From assembly GCA_900169235.1 (NCBI GenBank), contig FWCC01000177.1, forward strand, positions 62,001 to 126,000: DNA of 64,000 nt, given 5' to 3'. This document shows positions 34,359-61,674 of this stretch, piece after piece. The stretch's first letter is position 1. Every line of letters begins with the position of its first letter. The notes beneath the pieces were generated by a model. The model was not told where the DNA came from and made no database searches. It saw only the letters and a program-made list of their open reading frames with translations. A program made the translations under genes and the position numbers. The stretch comes from Zarea fungicola. Taxonomy: Eukaryota; Ascomycota; Sordariomycetes; Hypocreales; Cordycipitaceae.

Positions 34359-37300
34359 CTATAGATGTAGATGACTGTACTTACCATGGTGACCGTTTTG
34401 CATCTGAATCTCCTCAGAGACAAGTCTATGAGGAGAGCGCGCTATACTGATGATCATTTCCCCAAGACGTTGAGCAGCTGTTTGAGCTTGTGGCTCAATC
34501 AGTGTTTGGTTTGAAGCTAGCAAGTCGAGCAACAGTTCTTGTCCACGTGTAGAAGCTGAAATTGCAACATGGGAAGGTGCTTTAATTTGGTGAAACAATC
34601 TCATTGAAGGCTGAGTATCGCCGACCGAGATTGGCTTGTCAGCATCAGTATTTTGGTAAGTCACGATGCTGCCAAACCGAGTGCCTTGAGGCCAGGTCGT
34701 GCTTCGAGAGACAATGTCACGGAGTTCCACTGACTCGAATGGGAGCGAATCGCCATGCTGGTCTTGGACATGATGCAGCAAGTCAAGGAAGCTCCATTCG
34801 GGGTTGTACTTGACTCGGACGGGTATGGCGTTGATACACAATCCGACCAGGTTTTCTGCATCGAAACTGCTTGATGATCTTCCACTGTTGGTCTGACCAA
34901 AGACAACATCTCTAGAACCTGTCAATTGGGCCAGAACCAAGGACCATGCTGCTTTGACGAGAGTCGCCATGGTAATGCCGTGAGGCAGATCGGGGAGAGC
35001 AACTGTAGATTGAACGTGAATCGGCGAGCTGACTGACGCATCCTCTTCTGCTAGGTGATTGTGCGTAATATAGGTCATGCTGGATGCGTCAAGAAGGCTC
35101 CGCCAGAACTCATATGCCTGGGAAGTACCAGCGGCCAGCCACTTCTGGACGTGTGCCGAGTATTCGATAGGGTCCGGCAGCTGCCTGCCCTCATACAGAT
35201 CAACCAAGTCTCTCCACATGATGGAAATTGACATGCCGTCATATTGGGCATGCGAGATGCGGAGAATGAGTGTGATTCGATGGTCAGATCCCTGGACCAA
35301 GGTCATCCGGGTAATGAGTTCCTCCAGCATCGGTGCCTCGCGCGAGTCTTTCTGGCAAAGGGATTCCGTAAAGGGCACCAGACAGTCGTCTGTCTTGACG
35401 ATTTCAATGGGTGCATTGGAGCTGCGAAGAACGATCTGGGCAATCCTGCCTTGGTAGGGAATGAAGACAGTGCGGAAGATGGTATGGCGCTGAACGAGGC
35501 CACGGCACGCCTTTTCGAGGCGATCACAGTCAATGGAGCGATCAAAGTCGAGCATGAAATAGTAACTTCCGCGAATGAGCCGATCCTCTTGGCCTTGCAA
35601 TGCAGGAAATGCGTCGTAGATATCCGAAGTGTTGAATGGAAGGTCACTGCAGTCGATGCTCTCAATAAAGCTGCGCTGGTTGGTGAAGCCGAAGACGGAG
35701 CCTGGGACCACGCTGGACACAGCTTGGTGTTGAGGGTTGTGCGTACTATAAAATCCTGCCAGGTCGTATATCGTGGGATGGCTGAAAACATCAGTGACGG
35801 ATATCGAAATGGCTTGTTTGTGTGCAGCCGCCACCATCTTCATGGCCGTGATGGAGTCGGCCCCGAGATGAAATATGTTGTCTTTGACACCGATTTCGTC
35901 GACGCTCAGATCAGTGACAGAGCTCAGGATAGCCCTAAGCCTTTCTTCCATTTCATTGCATGGCTTTTCCCTTTGACCTCGCGTAGCCATGAAGAGATCA
36001 AACTCCGTTCGAGGCAGCGATGATGCTCGGTCGCGAAGTTGTCGGCGATCTATCTTCCCGGCTGTCGTTCTTGGGATGCGGCTCAGAGGAATGAAGAGCC
36101 CAGGCACCATGTACCCCGGGACCATGCTTCTGAGCTTCGTTTGGGCGGCGAGAAAGATGGCACGAAGCTCCTCGGTGGGAGTTAAAAACAAGTCTTCGCT
36201 ACCGTCACTGGCCATGGTCAGATGGATGAATGCCACCAGCAGAGGGTTTGCATTGGAGCCAGACGGAACAATGACTTCGGCCACTACATTATGGACCCCT
36301 GGAAAACACTGGCCAATTCGAAACTCGACTTCACCGAGCTCAATGCGTTGTCCTCGCAGCTTGACCTGAGTATCTTTTCGCCCGACGAATCGAAATGTGC
36401 CGTCTGGGTTGTACTGCACCAAATCACCCGACTTGTATACACGACCCTTACCGGCAGGACGGAAGTCCTTCATCCAAGGCAGATCTTCAATGAACAAGGA
36501 TGCCGTCTTCTCCGGATTGTTCAAGTACCCCCGAGCTAGAACGGGTCCTTCGATCAACAACTCTCCCACTGCCCCAATGGCGGTGAGCTTTGAAGCATCC
36601 GATGGCGTTGCAATCCAACCAACCCCGCCGACGATGTTGCCAAACGTGCCTGGCTTCCACCCTTGCACGGGAATGGGACCGAGAGCACAGATTGTGGCTT
36701 CGGCAGGTCCGTATCCGTTGATTAATGTCAGTCTCGAAGCCCATTTTTCCACGACATCCTGGGTCACAGCTTCACCACCGAGAACAAGAGTCTGCAGGGA
36801 TGGCACGTCGTCGGGATGGAGAATATTGGTTGCCGAGTTGGGCAAGGTGGCCCAGGTTACCTTTTGGGAGCGGATGAAGGCGGCAAGATCGTTCATGCGG
36901 TCGTGTTCGGACATGACACAGAGACAGCCACCGGACACCAGAGTGGTGCAGATCTCGTAGATGCTAGCATCGAATGCGTACGAAGCAAAGTGGAGAGACC
37001 GGGAGTCACTGTTAACTCCCATGCCAGGTCCATGGTCCCGGATGCTTGTGCTCAGCTGAACATGTTCCAGAATGATTCCCTTGGGCTTGCCGGTACTTCC
37101 TGACGTGAAGACAATGAACGCAGTGTTGCCCGGGGCTACTGTGGGCAATGGCCCCGTCTTCGATTTATCAAGGCCATCCAACAGGGCTGAAGTGACAGTA
37201 ATGACATTGGCAACCATGCCCTGCATCAAAGCCGTCTGTAATGGGTCGACGACTGCTGTAACCGCCCGACTCTGGTCCACAAAGTCCTGAATCCGGTCCG

Positions 37301-40300
37301 GAGGATGAGTGGGATCAACGAGAAGACACGCTGCACCGGTCCGAAGTACTGCCACGATGGAAATGATAGACCATTTTGACCGCTGGAAACAAAGAGGAAC
37401 AATCGTGTTTGGCTCCACCCCAGTACTGATCAGATGGAGTGCGAGTGCTCGAGACAGAACATCTAGCTCGGCATATGTGACGGTTCCATCCCACGAAGAG
37501 ATGGCTACGCGGTCTGGATGTGACATGCAGTGGTTCAAGACGAGATTATGTAGCGTCTCTTGCCGGGCTAAGGGTAGGACTCCATTCCATTTCACAAGCT
37601 GAGCGATATCCGCCGGGCTGATGACCTGCAAGTCGCCAATCTTTTGCTCAGGATCGCTGCAAAGCTGACGCAATATCGTCTGGAACAGGCCAACATGTTT
37701 TCTGGCCTCGTCTTCGTCCACGACGCTAGGGTCAAAGTTGCACTCGACACCGACCTTCTGATTGTTGGACGATAGTGAGCAGACAAGAACAAATGCGTAG
37801 CTGGAAAACTGGTCCGAGCTGTTACGAGACTGATGCTGCTCGAACAAGGTGGACTCATCCAAGTCCTCCGCCATCGGCTGGATGCCCAAATGACTCTGGA
37901 ATTCGCAGGCCGCTGCGGCCTCGCTGCTCATCTGGCGGATGTTTTGAAGTCCTGCCTGCTCAAACGGAATAGCCGCTAGCATGTTCTTCTGCACACCATC
38001 TAGTGCCTCGGCAATACTCTGATCGGCTCGAAGTTCAACACGAATTGGGATCGTGGTGATGGTCGGCCCGGTCAACCGGTCGACGTTTGCGAAAGAGGCA
38101 TTACGCCCGGTCAAAGTCTCTCCAAACACTACATCATCGGAGTCGGTGTGATGGGCGATGACGACAGCCCAGGCAAGTCGGATGAGCGTGGCAAGTGTGA
38201 AATCATGTCCCTCCCTGCGGCCAAGTGTGATGGATTGCGTAAAGGACATTCTTGCAGTTGGGGTATAGGTTGCTGAGGGCAAAGCAGGGAATGTTGGCGC
38301 CCTGAGATTCGCAAATCTAGATACCCAAAAGTCTCTCTCTGCCTTCTTGTCAACCTGCGAGAGATATGCCATGAATGGACTGAATGGGTGCAGCTGGGGG
38401 GCGTTGCCCGTGTATGATTTCTGGACTTGTTGCAGTATCAGTGGCAGCGAGAAGCCGTCATAGAGGGCGTGATGAATTGTGAGAACAAAGCACAGTGGCA
38501 TGTTGGCTTGCCTGACCAACGCCAGTCGCAGCAGTGGCGTACCGAGCTCCATCCGCCCATGATGATCGTCTGCGAGATAATCGTCCATACTCGTCGCCGT
38601 CTCCCACTCGATGCTGCCCCGAACGACCGCTTGGAACATCCCCGACTCCGCATGAATCAGCCTGGTGCGAAGGATAGGGTTAGCGGTCACGGTTGCATCC
38701 CACGCAGCACGGAACAAATCAGAATCTACATCTACTGGGAGGGTAAATGCCGTCCGATATACATAGGCGTCGGGGTTCTTGATAGTCATTGCGATGAGTC
38801 CTTCCTGAAGTGCTGTGCAGGGATACGCATCTTCAACCGCAGAATCATCAATGCCCAACTGATGGAGAGTGCCTAGCACATGATCGGCGGAGCCATCTGG
38901 CAGCAGAGAAAACTGCGGAGGAGGTTGATTTGTGTCTTCGCGCAGAACCCCCATTGCGAGCGCAAGATCTGACAGTTTAGGTTGAGAGAAGAGGTTGGCC
39001 ACGGTGACATACCAGCCTTCCAGGCGAGCCATTGCCACTAGCTTGATGGCCGTGATGGAGTCACCTCCAAGCCGGAAGAACGAGTCATCCAGCCCGATGA
39101 TATCCATACTCACGCCGAGAACGCCGGCGCACAACCGCTGCAGTACGGTCTCCTTTTTTGTCCGAGGGGCTCGCCTCTCCTGCTCACCAGCAGTCAACAG
39201 CGCCAGATCTTCTCGGGTCAGGGCGGATGCGTGTTGTTGCAGTTTGAGGCGGTCCGTTTTCCCACTGGCTGTAAGGGGCAGCTGCTCGATGGGTATGAAG
39301 GCGGTTGGGATCATGTATGCCGGCAGGAACTTGGAGAGCTTCTCTTCCAGACCGGCCGTCATCTCCCGCACTGTCCTACTGGATTGGTCCTGAGACCCAG
39401 GACTGATAAAGGCGACCAGGACTGGATGGCTGCCATCGCATGGCTTAATGGCCTCTGCAACAATGTGAATGGTTTCATTATTGGTAAAAACAGCATCTCC
39501 GCGGTCACTCAATGCCTGAAGTACATGATGCTCCACCTCGGCCAGTTCAACACGTTGACCGCGGATCTTGACCTGCGTGTCTTTGCGGCCGATGAAGATC
39601 AAACTGCCGTCCGTATGGTACTTGACAAGATCGCCGGTCTTGTAGAGTCTCCCATGTCGACCACTAGCAATTAACCACGGCGGACAGTGAACGAATACCT
39701 CTAATGTCTTCTGGGCTTGATTAAGATATCCCTGCCCAACCAGCGGCCCTTCAAGCCATAGCTCTCCAACACCATAAACCGGGGCCAGTTGATTCTCATT
39801 TTGGAGACTGACGATCCAGCTGTTGAGCCCAAGTCCTCGACCGATATTGCCCTTGGGTACCCCAGAGGTCAGTTCGGCAATGGTGGAAATGGCGGAGCAT
39901 TCGGCAGGGCCATACGCGTTCAGAATACGAGTGACCTTGGACCATCGCTGGAGTACCAGATCATCCAGGGCTTCTCCAGATGAAATGAAGCATTGTAGAT
40001 CGGGTAGGTCGTCCGGAACGAGCGTACGCGCCAAAGTCGGTGTCAACTCGGCATGGGTGGCGCGATACTGCCTCAAGCTACCGAGAAGATCATCCTTTGC
40101 TGCTGCTGGCTCCGGTATACAAAGGCATCCTCCCGACGAGAGTGTGTGCAGGACATTGCCCCAGGCCACATCAAAAGCGTATGAACCAACATCGAAGAGT
40201 CTAGATCCAGGACCGAGTTGCAACACATCCCGCTGATGGAAAACAGCACTGGCGAAGTTGGCGTGGGATATTAGCGTCCCCTTGGGTTTCCCAGTGCTCC

Positions 40301-43300
40301 CAGATGTGAAGATGATGTAGAGACTGGCGGATGCTTGGACGACGGGCAGTGGCCTGAATGTCTCCAGCGCATCTAAATGGGCTCGGTCCACAACAATGAC
40401 AGGAACCTTGGCGATCTGTCCGGCCATGTGGGCATTGGCTGCTGATGAGAGGATCAAACGAGGGTGAGTCTGCTCAACTACGGCGGCCAATCTTCCCTCT
40501 GGCTGCGTCGTGTCGAGTGCAAGGGATGCTCCGCCGACTTTCATCACGGCAACCATGGCAACGGCCGTCCACATTGATTTCTCAAAGCAGAGAGGCACCG
40601 TCGTATTCCCATCCAGGTACTGCATCAAATGGTAGGCGAGCCTAGTCGACAGTGTATCAAGCTCGTAATACGTCAACTTCCCGTCCCACGCACATATCGC
40701 CAGTGCACCAGGGTGTTTCCGTGCCATTGCAGCAATTTGGTCGTGCATGCAAGCCTCGACCGACTCGGGCACAGATCGATTCCACGCCCAGATATCACGC
40801 ATGTCCTCTTCACAAACCAATGGGATGTCTTTGATCTTGACCAGCTGGTTATGCGCGGCGTGAAACTGCCGCAGTACATGCTCAAACTGGTGCACCATCC
40901 GCTCGACGTGTGCCTCTTTAATCATATTCGAATCAAACCTGGCTTGGATGTGCAGACCTTTGTCGTCACAGAGGCACTGGACAATCAATCCAAAAGCATC
41001 CAGCTCACTGAAATTAAGGCCATCCTCACACGCAGCCTCGACCAGAAGAGTCTGGAATTGACAGCCTTGCTCGGCCTCGTCGCTGACTCGCTGAATATTG
41101 TGCAGTCCCATCTGCCCGAATCCTTCTATCGCGACTGTCTGCGCTTGAATATGTTCTAGGAGCTGACACAATGTAGCCTCCTCGTCCAGCACCAGCCGCA
41201 CTGGCACCATTCCCAGGTTTAGCTTGCTGAGCTTCGTCAGTACTCCAAGGACGACGTCGCTGGTGTTGGTATATCGCGCCAGGAGCACCGCCCACGCAAC
41301 CCGGATAGCAGTCGACGCAGCGACTTCAGCACGAATCCATTGGAAGCCTTGCAGACAATAGCCGAGAGTGGAAGTGGCTTGAGGAGAGTAGGATGGGGAT
41401 GGCAAAGACGGAAAGTGCTGTGTATCAAGATTGGCAAAGTATTGCTGCCAGAAGTCTGTCGCCAACTGTTGGCTCGCCCCGACAACAGACTGAAAGAAGC
41501 TAGCGCGCAGCGAATCAATATGATGGAAGCGTTCGGACACTCCATTCGATAGTCCCTCGCCCTGCAGGATATGCTCAATTGCCATGGTGAGGATAGAGCT
41601 GATATCCCGCGCCATGGAAAAACTAATAGATTCCTTGCGGTAACTGAGGCCAACCACTGTCGCAGTGTCCTCTAACAAAGCACTGACTGACACGGGAAAC
41701 TATGCAAGATTAGCACTGATTAATGATTAAGTTTGGGATCCTCACCTCGTGCGGATCATCGCCACCGGCCCTATGGAATCTCAGTCGGTTTGTTGTTGCG
41801 CCATCCATTCTTCTTTTCACAGTGACACACGAATCGAACAAGGGCCCATGGCCAAGCTTCAGCTCGTGCTGTATCTGAGCCAGTGAGACATGCTGATGAG
41901 CTAGATGCTCGATGGAGCTTTCTGCTGTCTTCCCAATAGCCTCATTCAGAGGCTGCCCTACATCGACTCGACTGATCAGCATGTTGGCCAATGGACCAGC
42001 CATGTCGTCAATATTATGGATCGGAACACTGCGACCTGATGACATGTATCCAAAACAAACATCACTGATTCCAGTGTACCACGAGAGTGTTATTGCCCAG
42101 GCAATCTGAATGAAGACAGAACGGGTGATGCCCCTGTTGACACAGAATGCGTGGATACGTGAAGTGGCCATCTCGGCGAGGCGGATATACCCGTGCTCCC
42201 CTTGCAAGACTCCTGCAGAGATGCTTCTAACAGGGAAACGACAGGGCGAGACATCCATCAACACCATTTTCCAGTACTCCATGCGATCGGCGGCTGGCGT
42301 GCGCCCCAAATGCTGCATCAGGTCTCTGAAGCGAGGGGCTTCTGATTGAGCGACGCCTTCGTATGCCTTTGCCAAATCATTAATAATGATGTTTGCAGAG
42401 TCGGCGTCATTTAAGGCATGATTCATATCCAACCGGCATGCGACATCGCCACTCGAGGATTGGCAGATTGTGAGCTGATGCAGAGGCTCGCCGTCCGCAA
42501 ACACTGGTTTTCCACATTCCATCAATGTATCAACAGGATTCCGCGATTCACATCTGACCTGATTGATTCGGACTGGGGCGTTGGCGACAAGGACCTGAGC
42601 GAACAAGTCATTTTCAACGAGCGGGACGAAGACAGTGGACAGGATGGAGTGACGATTGACAACACGTCGCCACGCTGATTCCAGCCGTGCCGGGCAGACG
42701 GGGACTTTTTCAGAAGGCATCTCGCAGCGCCAGACCTGGTGATTCATATATGACGATGTTCCTTTCTGAATGCTGAGCAGGATGCCCTCCTGCATGGGTG
42801 TGCAGGGATATATGTCCTCGACTGCATCGTGTGGAATCCCAGCGGCCTGAATGGTCTTCAGCAGACTGTCAAGCCCAATGTAGGAAAGCGACAGCAGAGG
42901 GAAGTCACTCAGGGTGAAGCTCTTTGGCCCTGTCAATAATTCATGCGCAGCTTGGGTGAGGCTATCAGCAAACACTTTGATCCACTGCTGGAGTCGAGCT
43001 TGGTGTTTCATCTGGCGGTGGAGGCTACAGGAAATAGTCAATTGACCAGACTGAGTGCCCAAGTTCAGCTCCACCAGTCCCATCCGGCGAGTGGTGGGAG
43101 ATTTTTGGCTGAAGTTGGCGGTCATTACAGAATCAGTCTCACGGCTCAACAGGGAGTCGTCACTTTCCAGCTGCTGGTAGACTCCCGCATAGTTGAAGAG
43201 CACCTCAACCTTGTCGTGCTCCCTAAATGCTGTCTGACCAGCCGGCGTGAGATAGCGACTGGCGGTATACGGCAGCCCTTTGCCGGGAACGGATCGGCGG

Positions 43301-46300
43301 ACATCCTTTGCGAGTTTGGTCATGTCAACAATGGTATCGTTTGGCCCCGATGAAATATAGATCGGGAAGATGGTCGTGAACCAGCCGACGATCTCGGACA
43401 GGTCAACTTCGAAATCGTCCAGAGCCTCTCGGCCGTGCCCTTCGACGAAGATGGGAGGAGGAAGACGATCGTCAAAGACTTGCTGGAATGAGTGGAATAG
43501 CATCGCCAGGAGAATATCTGTCGGTTCTGTTCCGAGCCTTTCGTTACTTGGGCCCAAAAGCTTTGTCGTCACGTCCTTCTCGAGACGGATGACGTGTATT
43601 TCGCTCTCAGCTTGGGTGTTTTGAGCAAGATCGACCCCCCAGTATTCATAGCCACGGGTGTCGACGGGGAATGGAAGCACTTGGGATGGTATCAACGACT
43701 GGGCCTTCTGGCTTTGCATCTTGCACCATGCTTGGAACGAGGTGGAGGGGCGCATCACCGCGTCCCGATGACCAAGCAGGGACTGCTCGATGTCATGCCA
43801 AATGACTCGCCATGACACCAGGTCAATTACCAGCTGATGAGCGCTGATCAGCAAGATTTTCTCACCTGAGGGAAGGCAGAAAACATCGGCGGCAAAGACG
43901 GGGCCATGTTGAATGTCCAGCTGCTCCTGTCGTGACTGAGCAAGGCTAGCGATTGCAGCTCTCTCGACATGATGCGCAGCAAAAGCAATCACATCGGCAC
44001 GACAACTGGCCACGTATTGTTGCCAATCACCATCCCGGCCTCTCTGAAAGCGTGCCCTGAGCATTGGATGACGCTCGGCAAGATGGTGGATAGCAGCGCT
44101 GATGCAATCTGTCGAGACCGGAGTTTTGATCCGAAGCAGAAAGCTCTGATTGAAGTGATCCAGTCCATCCGGATGGCTCTCAAAGAAGAGATGCTGTACC
44201 GGCGTCAATCCCCACGGCTCCTCCTCAATGGTCTGCATGCTGAGGACGGGAGAACCTTGCTGGATTAAACTACAAGATTTTGCCAGTGTCTGGATTGTTT
44301 GAGCCCGAAGGACATCGTCGGCCGTGACTCGAATATTTCTGGCTCGACATCGAGACACCAGCTGAATCGCCGTGATAGAATCGCCACCAAGTCGAGTCCA
44401 TGCTGAGTCGACCGAGATGGTCTCGGCAGGCCGGTTAAGCACGCTCATCCACACTTCCAGCAGAAGGGATTCCATCTCGGTTGAAGGTGCAATCCATTGA
44501 CCTACCTGCCTCTGAGCAGCAATTTTGCCATGGTTGAGGGACCCAATCTCGCGGAGCCGACGTCGATCCGTCTTCCCGGTCGTTCCCAATGGCATGCGCT
44601 CTAGCGGGAAGTAGGCACTGGGGATCATGTATGCGGGCAATCGCTCTGCCAGCTGAGCGTCCAGATCCGCAACCATCACGCGGAGGGCGGCAATGCTTTC
44701 CTCCACGGACTGCCCGTTGTTGCGAATAGAGACGAATGCTACAAGCGTCGGGCGGCCTGTCTCTTGAGGCTGAATGATTTCGGCGACGACCTCGAGAGTA
44801 CCGTCCTCATCGAACTGCTCCTGGCGACAAATCGCGGTCAGCACCTGATGGACGTGATGCTCGACCTCCCCTAATTCAATCCGTTGGCCACGCAATTTGA
44901 CCTGGGAATCTTTGCGTCCGAGGAATTGGAGAGTTCCATCGCTGGCGTATCGCACCAAGTCACCGGTCTTGTAGACACGGCCATGACGCCCTGGCTGGTC
45001 GCCGTAACCCTGGACCAGCCAAGGCGGGTCATCAAAGAAGGCTTCAGCGGTCTTGTCGGCGCTGTTGATATACCCTTGGCCCACCAGAGGCCCCTCGAGT
45101 AACAGTTCTCCCACGGCACCGACAGGGACCAGCCGGTTGGAATCCGCCGGGTGAACGACCCAGCACACTCCAGCTAACGGGGATCCGATATTCAATGGAT
45201 CTGAATCCGTGGTGATATGAGGCTGCACGGTGGCGAACACACTGCACTCGGATGGGCCGTAGACATTGACCAGGCGGACACTGTCGCACCATTGGAGCAA
45301 ATCAGTTTTGGAAGCAACCTCTCCACCAGACAGCGCCGTCGTCAATGTAGGCACTTCTGAGGGTGACATGATGCGCAGAACTGATGGAGTCAAGGCGGCA
45401 AAGTTGGCGTTGAATCGGCGGATAGCCCCGGAGGGATCGTCCTTGGCCTCACTGCTTGACGGTATACAGATACAACCACCTCCGATCAGTGTGAAGAAGA
45501 TATCCAGGATGCACACATCGAAGGCGTGCGACGAAAACTGCAAGGCCCGAAGGTCCGATCCCAGCCTGAGCTTGTCGTTGAAGGCCAACGCATTCGTCGC
45601 AAAGGCGTCGTGATGCACCATTGCTCCCTTGGGCTTTCCTGTCGAGCCGGACGTGAAGACGGCATATACGGTGTTCTTTGGAGTCGTCGTCGTGGCCAAC
45701 TTGCCACCATCACAGCCAATGTCTTGCCCTTCACCAACCGTTATGACTGTAGTGGCCAGTGTCGCTGCCTTGGCTGCCTGTTCTGGCGATGATACAACAA
45801 TATTGGCATTGACCTCTGCGTAAATGTCTTGTAGTCGTGTCAGTGGATGATTGGGCTCGAGCAAAACAAACGCTCCTCCTGCTTTGATGACACCAAGCAT
45901 CGCCACCGGCGTCCATCTAGACTTTTCAAAGAGAAGGGGGACAAAGATCTCAGGCCCGACACCGAGCAGACCGAGACGATGGGCGAGGCGAGTAGACAGT
46001 TCATCCAGCTGGCCGTAGGTAAAGCGGCCATCCCACGCATCGATGGCGAGGGCTTCCCGTTGTTTCTGGGTTCTGTCCGAGATTAAATTGTGCACGCAAA
46101 CGCCTTGTGCTGTGGGAATGTGTGCATTCCACTTCCAGATATGGTGCAGATCGGTGTCACTGAGAATCCCAACGTCCTTAACCTTGGTGGTTTGGTTTCC
46201 CGCGCACAGCTGTCGGAGCACGTGTTCAAACTGCAGCAACAGCCTCTCAACTTGTTTCTTTTCAATGATTCTGGAATCGTGATTTATTCGTACTTTCACT

Positions 46301-49300: not shown

Positions 49301-52264
49301 GCGTGATGGATCGTCAGCACGAGATATGTCTTCCCTTGTTCGGTGACTATATCATATCTCGCCAGAGGAGTTCCGAAACCCATGCTCTGCGAGTCATGGC
49401 CAGACTGCCAGTTCACCGGCTCGTTGACTACAACTTGAACCAATCCTTCCCCGGGGAGGTCGACAATGCGTGTGCGCAACAAGGGGACCGCCGCGACGGT
49501 CTGTTCCCATGATGTAATCAACTGAGAAACATCAACGGTGGGCCGAATCTCGAATTTGAATCGTCGGATATAGAGGCTGTCTTTTCTCGCCGTCAATGCG
49601 AGCAGGCCCTCCTGTAAAGGCGTGCAGGGCAAAACATCCTCCACCTGATCTTCTTGTATACCACACAGCGAGGCCGCTTCCCGACGGGCATCACTGGTCG
49701 AGATGCCGGACTTGAGCAATGAAAATGGCAACACGATGTTTTCTTCTAGCTCACTCGCCGTCCGGGCTAACTGTGCCAGTTCATTGAGTCGTGGATTGCG
49801 AAGGACGTCTGCAACGGTCAAATGCAGCCGTTCTTTACGCGCAGCTGTAACCAGACGCATCGCATCAATCGAGTCACCTCCCAGCCGAAGAAAGCTGTCG
49901 TCAGCCCCAACACGGTCGACTTCAAGATTCAGAACGGCCATGAAGATGCGTTGCAGTTGTTGCTCCCGGTCAGTCGCTGGGGCTCGATAGTTGGAGGTGG
50001 ATGCTGTCAGGGCTGCCATTTGGTTCAAGGTCAAAGATGCGCCGAGTTGTCGCAGCGCTCGTCGATCAGTTTTACCTGTCCCCGTCATGGGAATCCTCTC
50101 CACGGGGATACACACACTGGGAATCATATACACGGGTAATAACTCGGCCAGTTGCTCCGCCATGTGGGCCATCGTCTGCCGGATTGCCGTGTTTCGCTGC
50201 ACTTCTGATTTCTGTTCATTGCCAATCTGGTATACAAACGCCATCAATGTAGGGCGGTGGCTTTCCTTGGGTATCACCATGTCCACAACTACTTGGTTAG
50301 TCGACGTGCCTTCTACGCTGTTGGCCATGGCCTGCAGCATGTGGTGTTCAATCTCGGCCAACTCCACTCGCTGTCCATTAATCTTGACTTGACTGTCTTT
50401 GCGTCCCATGAAGGAGATGGTGCCATCAATGTTGAAGCGTCCCAGATCACCTGTTTTATATAACCGGCCCTGTGAGCTGAGCTGGAAGTATTCTCGCCAT
50501 CGGACATGATCAGGAAAGGCGGCTTCCGTCTTTTCCCGGTCTTTCATATATCCCCGGCTGACTGCGGCCGTCTCGATGACCAACTCTCCAATAGCTCCGA
50601 TTGGTACAAGGCGGTTGGCGTCTTCTGGGTCAACAATCCAGATCGCAGATCCTACTCCACGGCCGATGTTCGTACGCTCCGACCCTATTGTCAGTCGAGG
50701 GTTAATGCAACTGATAGCGATACATTCACTTGGACCATACGCATTCATAAGCTGCACTTTGTCGGCCCAGGTAGAAAGATGGGCAGCCGACATGGCTTCG
50801 CCCGCAAGGACCAGTGTCTGCAAAGTTGGAACGGCTTTGGGGTCGAGTAAACCGGCCACAGACGGTGTGATACTAGCCCAGTTGACCTGGTGGCGATTGA
50901 TGAACAACTCGAGATTGTTGACCCGGTCAGTATCGGATGGAATGCAGATGGTTCCATTGTGAATCAGCGTGAACAGAATATCGCGATGGCTCACGTCGAA
51001 TGCGTAGCTGGCAAACTGCAAAACTCTCGAGTGCTTGTTCAATTCCAGGAGCGCTCCATTCGCCAATGCCCGAGTACAGAAGGCACCATGCTCCACGACG
51101 ATGCCCTTGGGTCTTCCGGTAGATCCGGAAGTAAATGCTGCATACAGAGCATCCTGGGAGTTGACTGGACGCGACCAGTCAGGGTTACCTGACCAAATGG
51201 GGGACGTCTCATCGACAACAACGACGTTGTCGACCAGTTCCTGCACTTTTTCAATGGTCTGATGGGATGCCACCAGGATTGTGGCTTCAACATCTTGACA
51301 AATGCTTTCCATACGCTTTGAAGGATAGGATGGATCCAGCAGGACGTAGGCACCGCCAGCCTTGATCACACCCAGCATGGCAATCACCGTCCATTTGGTC
51401 TTTTCAAAACAAAGCGGCACAAACATGCCGCATCGCACGCCCTGCTCTGCAAGGTGCCCTGCGAGAGATGAGGAGAGTCTGTCCAACTCGCCATAAGTCA
51501 GTTCTCCATCCCAGGAGGAGACAGCGACATGCGAGGGATCCTGGCAGTTCTGATGAAAGATCATTTCGTCAACCCGAGCGTCCAATCTCTCTGGAATATC
51601 ATTGTTCCAGCCAAACAGGACATTTTTGTCATGCTGACTGCATATATCAAGCTCTCTGGGCTTGCTGTGTGGATTCTTCATTGTTTCTTGAATGGCCTGT
51701 TCAAATGTCGCTGCCACACTGGCCGCTTGCTCAATGGACATGATTGAACTGGAAAAGGACAGTGAAGTGGTGGCTTCATCAAGGTCAACCTCAAGGACCA
51801 ATTGAACCTATTGAGTGGTTAGCAGAGAACATGAACAGGGCCGGATTCCCTACATTTAATCCTGTCTCTGTGTGTTTATGTACAACAGCCGTGTTGAATG
51901 CCTCTCCCGACTGGGTTTCAATGGCTACTGCATCCTGTAGGGAACCGGTTTTTACTATGTCCAATAGCGATTCACCACTGAGCAGTGTCATGCAACACGT
52001 CCAGCTATGCCCATCATCACTCTCCCTCGGGAACTGGCAGCCGAAAATGGGGCTTTCGGAGCCAGTATAGACATGGAGAACCAGCGCCCAGCCCGTTTGA
52101 AATAAGGATAGTAGTTGAACGGCATGATTGTCACAGAACTCGATCAGAGCCGCCCGAGGCAGAAGGTCGATCTCTTTACGTCGCATTTTATGCCGCTCAT
52201 TGGATTGAGCGTTCAAGATAGGAAACAAGCAGGCTTGTTCGCCTGACAAATTCGTCGTCGCCAT
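34359..52264 (-). CDS. Five-module nonribosomal peptide synthetase with degenerate domains
   Basis: Exons 52264-51854, 51807-41746 and 41699-34359 give about 5,937 residues; both introns are in phase 0. Approximate motif positions: C-domain C-terminal part 1-230; A1 (FTSGSTGRPKG ~367); T1 LGGDSI ~782; C2 HHAMYDG ~974; truncated A2 ~1270-1475; T2 ~1539; C3 HHAIYDG ~1744; A3 ~2193; T3 ~2610; E ~2660-3090; C4 NHALNDAD ~3270; half C5 ~3545-3710; A4 ~3962; T4 ~4370; C6 HHALYDG ~4568; A5 ~5028; T5 LGADSI ~5438; terminal CT SHAQYDG ~5645. There is no thioesterase or reductase, so release is probably cyclisation or condensation by CT, as in fungal cyclic peptides. Binding-pocket codes read by eye: A1 DVRSVAAAIK, A3 DVLALGVVFK, A4 DVGEISAAIK, A5 DAYTVGGICK (close to the classical Phe code). 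There is no internal methyltransferase domain. A GTAAGT near the stop codon could mark one more tiny exon. Confidence 0.95.
41040..41545 (-). other. Half condensation domain dC5 in NRPS module 4
   Basis: After C4 ends (SISFSMARDISSIL), a second C-domain C-terminal half follows (FWQQYFANL, AIRVAWAVLLARYT, GLHNIQRVSDEA). The half carrying HHxxxDG is missing. The usual TGR...G.E...GP segment is also shortened, to GVLTKLSKLNLG. It sits directly before A4. Confidence 0.8.
42955..44220 (-). other. NRPS epimerization domain with His-to-Gln change
   Basis: The domain follows T3 and has the E-type landmarks LTPVQHLFFE, EGHGRE, GWFTTIFP and FNYAGVYQQLE. The active-site motif reads AHQLVIDLVSW where family members have HHxxxD. 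The second His, the one needed for alpha-proton exchange in studied E domains, is Gln, encoded by CAG at about 43828-43830 (minus). The conserved Glu of EGHGRE is present. Confidence 0.85.
47785..48410 (-). other. Truncated adenylation domain A2 of the NRPS
   Basis: The C2 domain ends normally at WTWNGAPP, and the frame then jumps to the end of an A domain. GELWLE, CLYKTGELAKY and GRKDTLSRINGRR (cores A6-A8) and a TGKNSGN version of A10 are present. Cores A1-A5, including the Ser/Gly/Lys ATP loop and the amino-acid pocket, are absent. T2 after it is intact. By comparison with A3 about 290 residues are missing, in frame. Confidence 0.85.
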
Positions 52265-52611: not shown

Positions 52612-52631
52612 TCAGCATCCTGCAGTCCCGG

Positions 52632-53771
52632 TTACCCACTCACTCCCACTGGTCCAGAGCCGGGAAAGTCTGCAGCCAGTGTATAGAACCCTGCCCCTGT
52701 TAGTATCCAATAATAGCGTAGGACAAATAGTCATCTTACAGTACATGCGCTCCGCATCACACCATTGGTCCCGTACTCGGAGTCCAGCTCGCTTGGCAAT
52801 CTGCTGCACATCACTGACCGTCCATTTGCCGCTGGTGATGGCCTCAATTTGGCTTCCATTGGTCAGGGATAGCCGACGTCCGTCCACGTTCAGCTCGGTG
52901 TCCGTGCGGCAAGTGTAGTACACTCGGAGTGTGTGATCATGGGCGTCAAATCGGCATACACAACCCCATTCATCGCTGTTGAACATGTTCCTGCCCATGA
53001 CGGTATTAGCATGGCGCAGTCCATTCAGGATGAACTCCCGTAGCGCCTCTTGGTCACTGTCATACGCTTCCAAGATCCGGCTCTCCTGCTGGCAGGCATC
53101 CACAGCAAGAAGGAACTGGCATGGCACTCCGGCTCCCTGCACAGCGCGGGCAAACTGGCCGAGCACTGAGCTCGCCTCCAACTGGCCGTAATTGGCCACA
53201 CTGTTGCCCATCCACAGCAAAGTGACCTGATTGACCTGTTTTCGGGGCCACGGGTTGCCAGCCAGCCACGAAATGCAGTCTTCGTAAGTCCCCACCAGGC
53301 CGTGCACCTTGACGCCACTTGATCGGCCCAATCGGGTGGTTAGTGTGGCCAGGCTGTGTGACAGCTCGCCTGCAGACACATCGAGGGCGTAGTAGTCGAC
53401 GGATCTGTTCTTGCGCTCGAGCGCGGAAAGAATTGCACCTGTCTTCCGCAGGCTCCTATACCCCGGTTAGATGCGAGACACCGGCCATTCTGTTTTCTCT
53501 CTGCTTACCCACAGCCCAGCTCAATCAGAACACTGCCGGGTGGAATTCGTGCGGCCATGTCATTCGCATACTGGGCCAGGATTTCCACTTCCTTGTCATG
53601 TAGATAATACGTCGGCGTTTGGGTCAAGGCATCAAAGAGATCCAGTCCGTCATCGTCCCATAGCAGAAGAGAAGGCAGCTTGAGAGGAGTGAATGACAGA
53701 CCCTGCACGATCAGCTCGGAGAGACTGGTGCCATCTCTGCGCTGCTGGATGTCTTGGAGCTGAACGGTCAT
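52632..53771 (-). CDS. EasF/EgtD-type amino-acid N-methyltransferase
   Basis: SAM-dependent methyltransferase of the histidine-specific (EgtD/Egt1) superfamily, in the branch that includes EasF, which methylates the amino group of dimethylallyltryptophan in ergot biosynthesis. Exon 1 is 53771-53509 and exon 2 starts at 53455. The join gives ELGCG|SLRKT, the SAM-binding motif of the family. Further landmarks are LPSLLLWDDDGLDLF, PTYYLHDKEVEIL, YYALDVSAGEL and NMFNSDEWGCVCRFD. The 3' end is uncertain. A third exon from 52696 would end at 52632; reading on without the intron would end at 52612. About 340 residues. It likely N-methylates an amino acid that feeds the adjacent NRPS, which lacks its own M domain. 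No other ergot gene is in the window. Confidence 0.85.
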
Positions 53772-54699: not shown

Positions 54700-56136
54700 C
54701 TAATCCAACCTATCTGACCTAGCCAGGAGTAACCGAACGACCCCTTCATGTCCACCCTCCTTAGCATATGACAGAGGGGTCCGATTATATCGGCTTCTGG
54801 AGTCTACCTTAACATCCGATCGCGCTAGCAGACATCGGACAACATCTTGATGCCCACGCCAGGCGGCACAGGAGAGCGGAGTAGAGCCTCGCTCGCCCTC
54901 GGCATCTGCTTCGACATGAGGTCGGGCCAGCAGTAGGTCAACAACTTGTGCATGCCCACCCAATGATGCGTACCAAAGCGAGCTCGAGCCATTGATATCC
55001 CTCGAGTCTGCTTCGACATCTACTCGATCAAGTAGTAGCTTGACAATGTCTTTGTGTCCTCGCTCCGCCGCATAGGACAGTGGCGAACGATTATGTTCGT
55101 CTCTTGCATCTGCGTGGGCGTCTGGCCGGGCTAGGAGGTGCTGCACAATTTCCGTGCATCCCCTGCTAGCAGCACGCGAGAGCAGCGTCAAACCGTGCCT
55201 GTCCCGAATGTCGGCGTTGACATCTGGTCTGGCCAGCAGCAGCGAAACAACGTCTGCGTGTCCATTCCAGACGGCAAACCACAGAGGCGTCAGACCATTC
55301 TCGTCGCTTGCGTCAGCGTCTATGCCTGCTTGTTCTAGCAGCAGTCGGACAATTTCTGCTTGTCCACAAAAGGCAGCGCGCCACAGCGGCGTGGTAGCTT
55401 CGTCATCTCTCACATTGGCGTCAACATCGCGTCGGGCCAGCAAGAGTGCCGCGATGTCTTTGTGGCCACCCCAGGCGGCTTGCCAGATTGGGGTCAGACC
55501 ATTGTTGTCTTTTGCGCCGGCTTTGATCTCTGGTCGATTGAGTAGTAACTGAACCACATTGGAGTGCCCATTCTGAGCAGCATGAGAGAGCGGCGTCCGA
55601 CCGCATTTATCTCTTGAATGTGCTCTAGCTCTTGGATGAGACAAAAGTAGTCGGATGACTTGTTCATGTCCATGACAGGCAGCGCGTGAGAGTGGCGTTT
55701 GGCCACGATTATCTCTTGCTTCTACGTCAATGCCTGGTCGCTCAAGCAACAACTGAACGGCATCTTTTTGTCCATGCTCAGCGGCATAAGCGAGCGCGGT
55801 CATGCCATTGTCGCATACATCTTTAAGACTGAATAATCCTTGCTGCAGTAAGATGTTGAGCAATGCGCAATCTCCGGCAGCTGCTGAGAGATGTATCATC
55901 CTTCTACCGCTCTCATCTTTTGCCAGGATCTCCTGCCGCCCAAGCCGCCGTATCAGAGAAGGACGCAAGAGTGCTAGAAAATCGATCGGCCCTAGTCCTC
56001 CCACATTGAAATGAGGCGAACTCTTTTGCAAGTCGACCATCTTGGCCATAGTTGATTCCTCCGACTCCGTGGGGCCATCGCTGAACCAGGCAGAAGGCAT
56101 GTTTTGAGCTCGATTTATCAGCACAATCTGGATCAT
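54700..56136 (-). CDS. Ankyrin-repeat protein with 12 repeats
   Basis: Single open frame of 478 residues. After about 70 non-repetitive residues there are twelve consecutive ankyrin units of about 34 residues, with the usual TPLxxAAxxGHxxVVxLLL core, running to the last residues. The units resemble one another closely (many share LLLARPDV), so the array probably grew by recent duplication. No NACHT, kinase or membrane domain is attached in this frame. An open frame immediately upstream (56585-56157) in another phase could be a lost or mis-spliced N-terminal part. A scaffold role is inferred. A link to the peptide cluster is unproven. Confidence 0.8.
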   Translation of the reverse strand: MIQIVLINRAQNMPSAWFSDGPTESEESTMAKMVDLQKSSPHFNVGGLGPIDFLALLRPSLIRRLGRQEILAKDESGRRMIHLSAAAGDCALLNILLQQGLFSLKDVCDNGMTALAYAAEHGQKDAVQLLLERPGIDVEARDNRGQTPLSRAACHGHEQVIRLLLSHPRARAHSRDKCGRTPLSHAAQNGHSNVVQLLLNRPEIKAGAKDNNGLTPIWQAAWGGHKDIAALLLARRDVDANVRDDEATTPLWRAAFCGQAEIVRLLLEQAGIDADASDENGLTPLWFAVWNGHADVVSLLLARPDVNADIRDRHGLTLLSRAASRGCTEIVQHLLARPDAHADARDEHNRSPLSYAAERGHKDIVKLLLDRVDVEADSRDINGSSSLWYASLGGHAQVVDLLLARPHVEADAEGERGSTPLSCAAWRGHQDVVRCLLARSDVKVDSRSRYNRTPLSYAKEGGHEGVVRLLLARSDRLD

Positions 56137-57311
56137 TGGGATAGCATCAAGCCAGACTAGATGCTGGATAGGAATAGGTTTTCATATAACCGGCCGAGAA
56201 TGAGATCTGTTGTATCGTTTGGAAGCAGGAAGGAAATCGGGAGAGACTTGGTTTTCGGGGAGGGCGGCAGCAGTCTGAGCTGGTTGAGTTTCGCTCTCCA
56301 CGGTATGTACCGCCATGCAAGCTTCTTGGAGTCGTTCGACGTTGGGATCAGCAAGACTAATCCACCCGGAGGGGCGGCGGTCGCCAAGACTGTCTGGCTT
56401 GTTAAGCTGCAGACCCTGGCTCTGATACTGTTGTCTTGCAGTGCCTGGTGTACCAGTTTGCGACTCAACAGGATGCGCAACCTCCAAGCCGGTCGAGCAC
56501 GATGGTATAGAGCATCATAGCCTGGCACGACACTGTAACTTTCGGCTGCTTGCGTAACTTTTGCCGCACAGAGTATCAGGTCCAAGACATTGAACCTTTC
56601 AGTTTGCGCAAGTCTTAGTATCCGTCAAGCTGCAGGACAACAAGCCGTGGCTGTGTGGAGAGAAAACAAGTGTAGCTGACACTGGCCATAGTGTTGTTTG
56701 AGACAGGCTGACGGCTGTACCCGTGATTGGCGGGAAAGCCGTATAATACCATTCCGAGACAGCTCTGATCTTGTACAATATCCACTAAGCACTATGAGGT
56801 AATGGTAATTGGGGCGGGGAAGCCAAATGGCACCGTTCCGAGACAGCGCTGCTTGTGTTTAATATCCACTAAATAAGCAGGTGATGTGATTAGCGGGAAA
56901 GCTATTCCAAGACAGCGCAGATCTTATGCCAATCCATTAAGCAGCCCGCTTAAGACACGTCCGCGAAAATGCGGCAGGCAACGCTGACCATTCACACCCA
57001 TGGATTCGGGTCATTCTTGACAAAACAAACCCATTCGCTCACTTTTCCTGCGAAACGCACTAATTGCCCGATATGCTGGCATAATTGCCCGATATGCTGT
57101 CCAATGCCGGAGCGCCACTTGGCAGATTGGACCCAGTTCGCCCGCTCAACGTGTGGTGCTCACTGACAAAGCGTACTTATGCAGTGTTTCACTACATCCA
57201 TCTTAGCCAGGCGACTGCGGATGTGTTAGCCACTTTATAAAGCCTGTCACGATAGCCAGGTCACTCAAAGCTGCGTTGAGAACAACAACATCACCTGTAA
57301 CGGATATCAGA
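56137..57311. promoter_or_regulatory. Upstream region of the carbamoyltransferase gene, with repeats
   Basis: An unrecognised 142-codon frame (56585-56157, minus) occupies the left part. Three degenerate copies of a unit starting TTCCGAGACAGC occur at 56752, 56836 and 56905. A 21-bp direct repeat of ATTGCCCGATATGCTG lies at 57061-57099. TATAAA at 57236-57241 lies 71 bp before the carbamoyltransferase ATG and is a good core promoter. Confidence 0.6.
57061..57099. repeat. 21-bp direct repeat, two copies
   Basis: TAATTGCCCGATATGCTG occurs at 57061 and again at 57082, differing only after the shared core. It is about 215-250 bp upstream of the carbamoyltransferase start codon. Confidence 0.9.
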
Positions 57312-59227: not shown

Positions 59228-59315
59228 AATGGAATTTTCAGGAACCTAGAAGGTATATATTAGATGTTAGGGACACCTGGCTGCGGCTGTTTATTACTTG
59301 ATCTTTTTAGGTCTC

Positions 59316-59365
59316 TGTGGTCGAGTGGTTACCTAGCACCCTTGTCCTTACAGGTTCGGTCTCGG
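59316..59365 (+). other. tRNA-like element with A and B boxes
   Basis: TGGTCGAGTGG (59318-59328) fits the pol III A box exactly, and GGTTCGGTCTC (59353-59363) is close to the B box. The start-to-start spacing of 35 bp is shorter than in a real tRNA (about 44), and no acceptor stem closes. It is a truncated tRNA-Ser-like or SINE-head sequence, not a functional tRNA. Confidence 0.4.
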
Positions 59366-60981
59366 AGTTGTGTGAACTTCGGCTTCGGTAGTCGGTGTGT
59401 ATTCCGATGTGCGCCCAGGCCGTAGACAGCAAGAATCCTGTTAATTGCCGATCATGTAAAACTTGACTTGGTGGAGTTGACGGTTGCCGGCACATTGGCG
59501 TCATCCATCAGGCTGCAACAGACCAGGTACACTCAACATGGCGTGCTTAGTGGGATGTACATGCACGTCTCAGTTTGCATTTCTACGTATCAACGCAGTA
59601 GTCTGGTACCAGCAGTATGTCTCACAAAAATGCTGACTAGTTTCTGCAGTGATGAGTCGGCATTGAAATGGTCCCAGGCTAACTTTTTAGCGTTTGACAC
59701 CGCATACACTAATGACAGTGCATGAGGTGATGGAAAGTGCATAACAGGGGTTGGCAGTAGATGAGAGGAGTCGCAATGCAGGAATTGACAGCGAATAAAA
59801 TATCTGAAAACACATAAAGCAAGTTCCGCAGCAACGTACAAGCAGGCTATGTACCTACACATCGAGTTACTAGTGTACTGTATTGTAGGGACATCGTCTG
59901 CACACAGTTGCGCCGCGGCTTGCCTTTCTCCCAGGCGCCTCTTTTGTCTCTATCTGCATGAAGCCATACCAATTCCAACCCTGTGGCGCTCACTCTGTCC
60001 GGTCTATGCTTAGCCGCCGCTGTTCCTTTTGTTAGCACGTAAATTCCAATACCTATTCTGCCTAGCCAACTAACATCTATTTTGTACACGGCATTCGTTT
60101 TGTCCATGCACCTGTTGATATGATCCACAACCTGGGGCTGTAAATTCTACCGCTAATCTGTCCTTCACTCCCCTTTCACGCTGCAGATGGGAGAGCCTCC
60201 GATACCGGGTCGGCCCGAAACAAGACGACCGACTTGTCCCGTCATTTACTGCCTTTAACTTTCAGTCAGGGGGGTGCTGGCAATGCTCACATGGCGCGCC
60301 CCAGTGCCGTTATCTCTCTTTGTTTCTACACATACAATACGCTGGCTGCAGTTCGCTACCAACAAGCACAGAGACTTTGTATTCTTGGCACATGAGCGGA
60401 GTCATTTTGGCCAACGTTGATTTCTCTTCTCTCCGCATGCAGGATTCTGGGCCAATGTCGTACGACGTAAATTACCCGATGATCTCTAGTTCCACTTCTC
60501 GCATGTACTGGTAGTAAAAAATACTGCGGCTTGTGAGACAACGGGATCCACGTACAAGTAATCTTTAAATAGATGGACCCATAAGATTGCTTGGCCCAGG
60601 TGCAGCATTTCGGTTCATTTAAGCGCCTTTGCCGGAATCTGGGATGTGACGGGGAATATTTTCAGCTGTTACCATCCCCGACGTTTGTCTCACTTCTTTG
60701 TTTTTGTGGTTTTTCGCAGTCCGACGTAACCTGAGCGAGGTACTTGCCAAAACTCCCCGACACTTCCCGAATGTCCCCGGTTCAAAATCGTAATTGCCTT
60801 GTCTCTTGTTCGTAGTTGTCAGCTTTAAAAGTCATAGTGGCTGCCTCTTTTGCAAGTGTATGTAAAATCCTGATTCAAGGGCTTTTTTTGGTATACCATC
60901 TTGGTTGTGATATCCTTACTGTTACGATTTGAACTACCATACTCTCCATACAACTTCATAACCCTTCTTGTCAACGGGACA

Positions 60982-61674
60982 ATGGCCACTGTCTCTCCCT
61001 CTCCACGTCCCGATTGGGACCGACGACAGTCTGAGCTGTGGGCTGAGTCTATTGCACACAAGGATACCTACTTCGCTCGTGTCGGCAACTTTGACATCGC
61101 TCTTCATCCTTCTGTGCTTTCTCCTAAATACTTCCCGGAGTCGCTTTGGTTCGGTGAGAACCTTCCCGCCATTGTTCAGGGCAAGTCATTCCTCGAAGTC
61201 GGGCTCGGCACGGGGCTCGTTTCACTGCATCTTGCCGCTTCTGGCTCTGCTGTTGCCGGTGTAGACATTAACCCCAAGGCCGTTGAAATCACCAAAAAGA
61301 ACTTTGAGTCAAACGGCCAGATCGGTCACTTTGTTGTTAGTGACGTTTACGAAAATGTGACTCAAAAGTATGACTTTATTTTCTGGAATCACCCCTGGGC
61401 GTGGGACGGAACAATGCAGGCCGAAGACGAAAAGCTAGAGATGTTCTTGGACGAGGGCTACGCTACGCTAAAGCGCTTCATCTCTCAGTCCAAGAACCAC
61501 CTGAACGAAGGCGGATCCGTCTTGCTAGGAACAGTCCCCTACGCCAACTTGAGTGCTATAGAAGAGATTTGTGCTGCCTGCGGGTATACTCAGGAGATTA
61601 TTCGAGAGGGACTCGGCGATTTGGGTAATGGTGTGACTGAGCAGTATTACATTATCCAAATACGACCAAACTAG
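60982..61674 (+). CDS. Class I SAM-dependent methyltransferase, small
   Basis: Intronless, 230 residues. The ATG at 60982 is chosen because it has a good context (ACAATGGCC) and the upstream frame extension is hydrophobic and unlike the family. The SAM-binding motif I is FLEVGLGTGLVSLHLA, with the acidic VDINPKA after it. The catalytic-loop motif is FDFIFWNHPW-like (YDFIFWNHPWAWDG). NHPW sits where PrmC/HemK and N6-adenine or N5-glutamine enzymes have NPPY, so it belongs to that 'MTS-like' group, though with a His in place of a Pro. The substrate is unknown. It could tailor the NRPS product or be unrelated. The compact intronless form allows a transfer origin but does not prove it. Confidence 0.8.
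   Translation: MATVSPSPRPDWDRRQSELWAESIAHKDTYFARVGNFDIALHPSVLSPKYFPESLWFGENLPAIVQGKSFLEVGLGTGLVSLHLAASGSAVAGVDINPKAVEITKKNFESNGQIGHFVVSDVYENVTQKYDFIFWNHPWAWDGTMQAEDEKLEMFLDEGYATLKRFISQSKNHLNEGGSVLLGTVPYANLSAIEEICAACGYTQEIIREGLGDLGNGVTEQYYIIQIRPN

What the first reader, a model, noticed from the sequence alone, without database searches (positions are those of the whole stretch)
34359..61674. Candidate undescribed peptide pathway: NRPS, EasF-type N-methyltransferase, bacterial O-carbamoyltransferase, small methyltransferase
A cyclising-type fungal NRPS without its own methyltransferase domain is paired, same strand and 368 bp apart at most, with a free-standing amino-acid N-methyltransferase. 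A carbamoyltransferase rare in fungi lies 5 kb away. Together they predict a small cyclic peptide carrying an N-methyl and an O-carbamoyl group. I know of no described fungal pathway with this combination. The cluster borders are uncertain: the ankyrin protein, the amidase and the small methyltransferase may or may not belong.
Basis: partly seen in the sequence, partly recalled or inferred. Interest (0 to 1): 0.88.

Follow-up and report, generated by a model that had tools for sequence, protein, structure and literature searches.

The report
Fungal peptide cluster with bacterial carbamoyltransferase
A mould carries a gene cluster that probably builds a small ring-shaped peptide from a pre-methylated amino acid and decorates it with an enzyme that its ancestors apparently took from bacteria related to ones that live inside fungi.

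Summary
The genes are real and intact. One three-exon NRPS (5937 aa) has five carrier domains, four complete adenylation domains, an epimerase domain, a cyclising terminal condensation domain and no methyltransferase domain. An EasF/EgtD-type N-methyltransferase lies 347 bp upstream on the same strand. An intronless O-carbamoyltransferase lies 5 kb away.

The NRPS/free N-methyltransferase pairing is not new in kind: cycloaspeptide and ditryptophenaline work that way. The last adenylation code agrees with each of cycloaspeptide's two N-methyl modules at 8 of 9 positions. Module 1 is not anthranilate-type, so this is not cycloaspeptide.

New here: (1) by equal contig length, NRPS, N-methyltransferase and carbamoyltransferase are linked in Lecanicillium and one unnamed contig, NRPS and carbamoyltransferase in Aspergillus egyptiacus. 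(2) The fungal carbamoyltransferases form one clade, next to Mycetohabitans/Mycoavidus, where 3 of 8 copies sit beside NRPS genes. (3) The NRPS lacks most of its second adenylation domain, as do orthologues down to 63% identity.

Against: 18 of 22 fungal carbamoyltransferase clusters showed no linked NRPS of this type (4 of the 18 on contigs too short to tell). Product and carbamoylation site are unproven. Ankyrin, amidase and small methyltransferase genes are unassigned.

The parts
34359..52264 (-). NRPS gene, exons 52264-51854, 51807-41746, 41699-34359; 5937 aa; order (C remnant)-A1-T-C-A2 remnant-T-C-A3-T-E-C-half C-A4-T-C-A5-T-CT
   Evidence: A. egyptiacus orthologue 84% over 5922 aa
49990..51618 (-). 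A1 region (adenylation); first nine code positions DVRSVAAAI, same in 4 of 5 sequences compared (one change in Lecanicillium)
47710..48435 (-). A2 remnant, 242 aa, core of adenylation domain absent; the carrier domain behind it keeps its serine
   Evidence: Pfam finds only two AMP-binding stretches in this exon
44494..46152 (-). A3 (module with epimerase); code DVLALGVVF, different in each of the five sequences compared
42853..44226 (-). E (epimerase) domain; HH motif reads HQ at residues 2794-2795 (CAT CAG), HH in 4 of 4 orthologues compared
40806..41540 (-). C-terminal half of a condensation domain directly after a complete one; shared by the four orthologues compared
39177..40805 (-). A4; code DVGEISAAI
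35970..37610 (-). A5; code DAYTVGGIC, 8 of 9 positions as in PscyB modules 3 (Phe) and 5 (Tyr/Phe), which take N-methyl amino acids
   Evidence: Table 1 of PMC5941284
34359..35693 (-). Terminal condensation-like domain (CT), motif SHAQYDGMS
   Evidence: PscyB has SHAQYDGVS
52612..53771 (-). EasF/EgtD-type N-methyltransferase, exons 53771-53509 and 53455-52612, 368 aa
57312..59009 (+). O-carbamoyltransferase (PF02543+PF16861), 565 aa, one exon
60982..61674 (+). Small class I methyltransferase (PF05175); membership uncertain
54700..56181 (-). Ankyrin-repeat ORF between N-methyltransferase and carbamoyltransferase; membership uncertain

Best explanation
A cyclic-peptide pathway of the cycloaspeptide type with one extra, horizontally acquired tailoring enzyme. 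The free N-methyltransferase methylates the amino group of free Phe or Tyr (inferred). The last NRPS module activates that N-methyl amino acid (inferred from its code), and the CT domain releases the chain as a ring (inferred from domain and motif). Because one of five carrier domains has no adenylation domain of its own, the product has either four residues, or five with one residue loaded by another module (inferred). The carbamoyltransferase then moves a carbamoyl group from carbamoyl phosphate, with ATP, onto a hydroxyl of the peptide (inferred from family). Shown here: gene structures, domain order, conservation of the degenerate module, recurrent co-occurrence on contigs of equal length, and the bacterial affinity of the carbamoyltransferase.
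For: Domain order, EasF model above cut-off, carbamoyltransferase domains above cut-off. A5 code 8 of 9 to each of the two N-methyl modules of PscyB; CT motif SHAQYDGMS against SHAQYDGVS. Knock-out and feeding work on PscyA/PscyB and on DtpB/DtpA shows this logic in pathways of the same layout (PMC5941284, Results and discussion read in full). N-methyltransferase and NRPS lie in one gene model in A. felis and A. hiratsukae. Nearest bacterial carbamoyltransferases by the trees: 3 of 8 copies lie in NRPS loci.
Against: 18 of 22 fungal carbamoyltransferase clusters showed no linked NRPS of this family (4 of them on contigs under 13 kb); A. wentii, A. felis and A. hiratsukae have the NRPS, and none of them is named among the 120 best carbamoyltransferase hits. 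No N-methyltransferase hit for A. egyptiacus. No convincing shared promoter motif. The carbamoyltransferase is on the opposite strand with an ankyrin gene between. Codes of A1, A3 and A4 gave no substrate, so no hydroxyl acceptor is predicted except a possible Tyr. The E-domain motif is altered here. Four unnamed clusters (P0028-P0031) are as similar to the fungal enzyme (62-64%) as the Mycetohabitans/Mycoavidus ones; only the trees separate them.
Confidence: 0.57

Rival explanations
1. The carbamoyltransferase is a mobile neighbour that serves a different metabolite; only NRPS and N-methyltransferase form the pathway.
For: 18 of 22 fungal carbamoyltransferase clusters without linked NRPS of this type; three Aspergillus species have the NRPS and are not among the 120 best carbamoyltransferase hits; opposite strand, 3.5 kb and an ankyrin gene away from the N-methyltransferase.
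Confidence: 0.25
2. The carbamoyltransferase acts before assembly and makes an O-carbamoyl amino acid (for instance from Ser, Thr or Tyr) that the NRPS then loads, in parallel with the N-methyltransferase.
For: The N-methyltransferase of pathways with this layout acts on free amino acids before assembly (PMC5941284); A3 and A4 codes match no substrate known to me.
Against: The solved relatives (TobZ, GdmN, novobiocin enzyme) tailor finished scaffolds, as recalled.
Confidence: 0.18
3. The NRPS is degenerating in this strain and makes little or nothing: most of A2 lost, half a condensation domain left over, epimerase motif HQ.
Against: A2 loss and half C are shared by A. egyptiacus, Lecanicillium, A. 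wentii and A. felis, so they are old; 5937 codons stay open; all five carrier serines and the C1, C2, C4 and CT motifs are kept in the window.
Confidence: 0.1
4. This is the cluster of a known metabolite whose genes are not yet linked to it, for example an N-methylated cyclic tetra- or pentapeptide.
For: Fungal N-methyl cyclic peptides without assigned genes exist (recalled); NRPS orthologues occur in Aspergillus species.
Against: One search for O-carbamoyl with cyclic peptide and fungus gave one unrelated paper (listing only); most subscription journals are not held, so this is weak.
Confidence: 0.15

Closest known systems
Cycloaspeptide cluster PscyA/PscyB (Penicillium soppii; PMC5941284)
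   Same: NRPS without methyltransferase domain beside a free N-methyltransferase; CT motif SHAQYDG[V/M]S; last-module code nearly the same
   Different: Module 1 there is anthranilate type (G at 235), here D; here an epimerase domain, a degenerate A2 and a carbamoyltransferase; codes of modules 1, 3 and 4 differ.
Ditryptophenaline DtpA/DtpB (as told in PMC5941284)
   Same: Free N-methyltransferase feeding N-methyl-Phe to the NRPS
   Different: Two-module NRPS, P450 in the cluster, dimeric diketopiperazine
Aspkyncin AacA/AacB (PMC11942691, passages read)
   Same: Free amino-acid N-methyltransferase acting before NRPS assembly
   Different: Two-module NRPS, N-methyl-alanine; family of AacB not compared here
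TobZ / GdmN / novobiocin carbamoyltransferase (CmcH/NodU family)
   Same: Full-length match, E about 1e-87 to 1e-100; domain pair PF02543+PF16861 in the window gene
   Different: Bacterial, substrates sugars or ansamycins (recalled); here a fungal gene near an NRPS
Mycetohabitans/Mycoavidus carbamoyltransferases
   Same: 62-64% identity, nearest bacterial clade in both trees; 3 of 8 copies in NRPS loci
   Different: Bacterial NRPS with thioesterase release in two of the three loci; products unknown to me

Membership tests
Cycloaspeptide-type pathway (NRPS plus trans N-methyltransferase) | NRPS lacks an integral methyltransferase domain | tested here: met
   Pfam scan of all three ORFs
Cycloaspeptide-type pathway (NRPS plus trans N-methyltransferase) | Adjacent EasF/EgtD-like N-methyltransferase gene | tested here: met
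   TIGR03439 222.8 bits against 205.55; 347 bp. That PscyA resembles DMAT and histidine methyltransferases is the paper's statement; its sequence was not compared
Cycloaspeptide-type pathway (NRPS plus trans N-methyltransferase) | CT domain with SHxxxD motif | tested here: met
   SHAQYDGMS
Cycloaspeptide-type pathway (NRPS plus trans N-methyltransferase) | Module code for N-methyl Phe/Tyr | tested here: met
   A5 DAYTVGGIC: 8 of 9 to each PscyB module; position 517 not extracted; mapping by motif anchors from recalled GrsA numbering
Cycloaspeptide-type pathway (NRPS plus trans N-methyltransferase) | NRPS takes up free N-methyl amino acids | not testable with these tools
   needs feeding experiment
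Cycloaspeptide itself | Module 1 anthranilate code with G at 235 | tested here: not met
   A1 begins D
Cycloaspeptide itself | Five complete modules | tested here: not met
   four AMP-binding stretches, five PP-binding
CmcH/NodU O-carbamoyltransferase family | PF02543 and PF16861 above cut-off | tested here: met
   184.3 and 224.7 bits against 24 and 27
CmcH/NodU O-carbamoyltransferase family | Transfers carbamoyl to a hydroxyl | not testable with these tools
   needs assay
NodU nodulation protein | NCBIfam NF041651 equivalog cut-off | tested here: not met
   173.8 against 1000 bits
Histidine methyltransferase EgtD | NCBIfam TIGR03438 equivalog cut-off | tested here: not met
   102.1 against 290.9 bits (second-exon ORF only)

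The most novel reading that the evidence does not exclude
A fungal NRPS cluster captured an NRPS-tailoring carbamoyltransferase from the lineage of endofungal Burkholderiaceae, and the enlarged cluster then moved between Hypocreales and Aspergillus; it makes the first fungal O-carbamoylated N-methyl cyclic peptides, on an assembly line that runs with one adenylation domain missing.
Probability: 0.4. Interest if true: 0.75.

Novelty: new variant of a known kind. Interest (0 to 1): 0.58.

Why it matters
If true, it links bacterial symbionts of fungi to fungal peptide chemistry through a traceable gene, gives a fungal enzyme for putting carbamates on peptides, and offers a small system for asking how an NRPS copes with a module that cannot load itself. 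The claim is directly testable with three gene deletions and LC-MS.

Tried and rejected
Promoter comparison: 800-bp upstream stretches of N-methyltransferase, carbamoyltransferase, small methyltransferase and ankyrin genes and 347 bp for the NRPS share only a few 9- and 10-letter words across genes; no chance control was run. The many shared words of carbamoyltransferase and ankyrin come from the overlap of their divergent upstream stretches.

Joint transfer of carbamoyltransferase and the small methyltransferase: in 7 of 8 bacterial loci a methyltransferase with PF05175 above cut-off lies next to the carbamoyltransferase (the eighth, L102, has an ORF without Pfam match there), and in the window a PF05175 gene starts 1972 bp downstream on the same strand. 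Bacterial (2 tested) and fungal ones have NF011529 as best NCBIfam model, below its cut-off. But identity is only 25% over 147 residues against 62-64% for the carbamoyltransferase, so joint transfer is not supported; the parallel is noted, not explained.

Species name: trehalose-phosphate synthase of this genome scores 791.5 bits against chain 6jbi_A and 717.8 against 5hvm_A. By recall these are Magnaporthe oryzae and Aspergillus fumigatus; I conclude only that the genome is probably not an Aspergillus. No species was named. A second marker (isocitrate lyase) was found but not compared.

Papers whose full-text hit was only ornithine carbamoyltransferase were set aside (PMC11928401, PMC4960244, PMC11852223; passages read). 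PMC13313595 lists a Beauveria carbamoyltransferase in a table of positively selected genes without cluster context (passages). PMC3102044 reports 14 NRPS clusters in B. rhizoxinica; its one 'carbamoyl' passage is aspartate carbamoyl transferase (passages). PMC11193748 (leucinostatin methyltransferase) and PMC13027483 (nectriatidels) gave no closer match (passages).
Full report
What is there. The window is part of contig C89 of a 43.1-Mb fungal genome in 456 contigs. Between 34.4 and 59.0 kb it holds three intact genes. The NRPS runs on the minus strand in three exons (52264-51854, 51807-41746, 41699-34359) and encodes 5937 residues. Upstream on the same strand lies a two-exon methyltransferase (53771-53509, 53455-52612; 368 residues), whose stop is 347 bp before the NRPS start codon. 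On the plus strand at 57312-59009 lies a one-exon, 565-residue carbamoyltransferase. The splice sites are read from sequence; no transcript was seen.

Anatomy of the NRPS. Pfam finds four AMP-binding, seven Condensation-type and five PP-binding stretches and no methyltransferase domain. My reading of the order is: condensation remnant, A1-T, C, A2 remnant-T, C, A3-T-E, C, half C, A4-T, C, A5-T, CT. The A2 remnant is 242 residues long and was not recognised as AMP-binding. Both oddities are old: A. egyptiacus, Lecanicillium, A. wentii and A. felis orthologues align through the A2 remnant with at most 4 gapped positions and through the half C with at most 11, the last at 62.7% identity over 5924 residues. 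All five carrier serines are kept in the five sequences compared. In this strain the epimerase motif reads HQ where 4 of 4 orthologues compared read HH (codons CAT CAG); the second His is catalytic by recall, so epimerisation may be lost here. In Lecanicillium the first condensation motif is altered instead (HYAMYDE).

Substrates. Nine of the ten code positions were read by motif anchoring (numbering recalled from GrsA). A5 reads DAYTVGGIC in the window, A. egyptiacus, Lecanicillium and A. felis, and DVYAVGGMC in A. wentii. Table 1 of PMC5941284 gives DAYAVGGIC for module 3 (Phe) and DAYTSGGIC for module 5 (Tyr/Phe) of the cycloaspeptide NRPS, the two that take N-methyl amino acids: 8 of 9 agree in each case. 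A1 (DVRSVAAAI) is nearly constant. A3, the module with the epimerase, differs in all five. A4 is constant or nearly so in four and different in Lecanicillium. I could assign no substrate to A1, A3 or A4.

How the pieces work together. In the cycloaspeptide and ditryptophenaline pathways a free N-methyltransferase makes N-methyl-Phe or N-methyl-Tyr, which the NRPS loads; deletion and feeding show it (PMC5941284; Results and discussion read in full; passages of abstract, introduction and conclusions). Here the same layout is present: no methyltransferase domain in the NRPS, an EasF-type enzyme next door (222.8 bits against a cut-off of 205.55), an aromatic-type last module and a CT motif that differs from PscyB's by one residue. 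In A. felis and A. hiratsukae the two proteins are in one gene model (N-methyltransferase parts 71% over 318 and 66% over 364 residues); whether that is a real fusion or an annotation join I cannot tell.

Recurrent linkage. The protein search prints the longest contig of each cluster; I read equal lengths as one contig. As a control, the window's three proteins all show 25688. Counted over the close hits, window included: carbamoyltransferase with NRPS, 4 of 22 fungal carbamoyltransferase clusters (15 named fungal, 6 unnamed placed by the tree, and the window) and 4 of 8 NRPS clusters at 61% identity or more (the others: A. wentii, A. felis, A. hiratsukae and a 12.4-kb lgn contig). Of the 18 carbamoyltransferase clusters without it, 4 lie on contigs of 1.9 to 12.2 kb, too short to show it; 14 lie on contigs of 39 kb or more. 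N-methyltransferase with NRPS: 6 of 8 (window, Lecanicillium, lgn 26038, A. wentii fragment, A. felis, A. hiratsukae); the two others are Clonostachys byssicola, with no NRPS orthologue listed, and a 4.1-kb contig. The lists show the best 120 of 7998, 26 of 26 and 120 of 1403 hits, and the NRPS search saw only proteins of roughly 2260-7180 residues, so absences are weak.

Origin of the carbamoyltransferase. In a tree of 36 proteins the 22 fungal ones form one clade (100/100), next to a clade of Mycetohabitans and Mycoavidus plus one unnamed protein (94/90). A tree of 128 rows, all 120 listed hits plus eight bacterial loci, agrees (fungal clade 100, junction 92; one unnamed partial protein, P0033, also falls among the fungi). 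Identity to those bacteria is 62-64%; four unnamed clusters, P0028-P0031, have the same identity but fall outside in both trees. Among 150 genomes of that bacterial family, 5 carry copies at 62-64%. Of eight such copies examined, 3 lie in NRPS loci (L102 and L115 directly behind an NRPS end with thioesterase; L110 with a methyltransferase between it and an NRPS start). The other 5 are followed by a methyltransferase and, in 4 of 5, an ORF with an ABC-transporter domain; the fifth, L112, is cut off by the end of the fetched stretch and has no match. So the nearest bacterial relatives are partly NRPS-associated. That Mycetohabitans rhizoxinica lives inside Rhizopus is told in PMC3102044 (abstract); for Mycoavidus it is recalled. 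Direction (bacterium to fungus) is inferred from the bacterial breadth of the family and the lack of introns. The gene has GC 59.7% and GC3 68.9% against 53.7% and 58.3% for the NRPS.

Movement among fungi. The A. egyptiacus NRPS is closer to the window's (84.1%) and to Lecanicillium's (82.75%) than to A. wentii's (77.9%) or A. felis's (63.8%). The window genome is probably not an Aspergillus: its trehalose-phosphate synthase scores higher against 6jbi_A (791.5 bits) than against 5hvm_A (717.8) (organisms recalled). This fits transfer of the cluster between fungal classes, but gene loss and uneven rates were not modelled. The 13-row carbamoyltransferase subclade with the window mixes Pseudogymnoascus, Nemania, Ramularia, Aspergillus, Fusarium, Beauveria and Lecanicillium, which also suggests transfer.

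What stays open. The residue that is carbamoylated, ring size, and whether the enzyme acts before or after assembly are unknown. Ankyrin gene, amidase and small methyltransferase cannot be placed in or out. No convincing promoter motif was found. Searches of 5.39 million open papers listed nothing on a fungal NRPS with such a carbamoyltransferase (listings; only 30 of 209 papers were listed); most subscription journals are not held.

Noticed in passing
L010 1231-3453 (own genome C115): A second PF02543 gene, 740-residue open frame, 81 bits: a distant carbamoyltransferase-like protein, so the superfamily is not confined to this cluster.
   Followed up: partly
own genome C132 and C352: Two further places with PF10017 methyltransferase matches beside the one in the window.
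   Followed up: no
L101, L111, L112, L113, L114: Conserved bacterial trio carbamoyltransferase, PF05175 methyltransferase and (4 of 5 by Pfam) ABC-transporter ORF in Mycetohabitans/Mycoavidus-type genomes, with no NRPS seen in the stretch read; substrate unknown.
   Followed up: partly
L115 2809-19500: Carbamoyltransferase directly behind a 4953-residue NRPS ORF with five adenylation domains and a thioesterase.
   Followed up: partly
window 60982-61674 and L110, L111: A PF05175 methyltransferase follows the carbamoyltransferase in the fungus and lies beside it in 7 of 8 bacterial loci, yet at only 25% identity in the one pair compared.
   Followed up: partly
P0015 and P0020: Different Beauveria bassiana records hold carbamoyltransferases of two different fungal subclades.
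   Followed up: no
P0145: A. wentii protein of which 55 residues match the N-methyltransferase at 80% while the rest does not: a wrong gene model or a broken gene.
   Followed up: no
window 18841-22722: An ORF with LysM domains and an ORF with a GH18 match just below cut-off (27.3 against 29.6 bits) close together; a chitinase-type locus unrelated to the cluster.
   Followed up: no
window 830-1054: Short tandem repeat read as repeated TDF in one frame.
   Followed up: no
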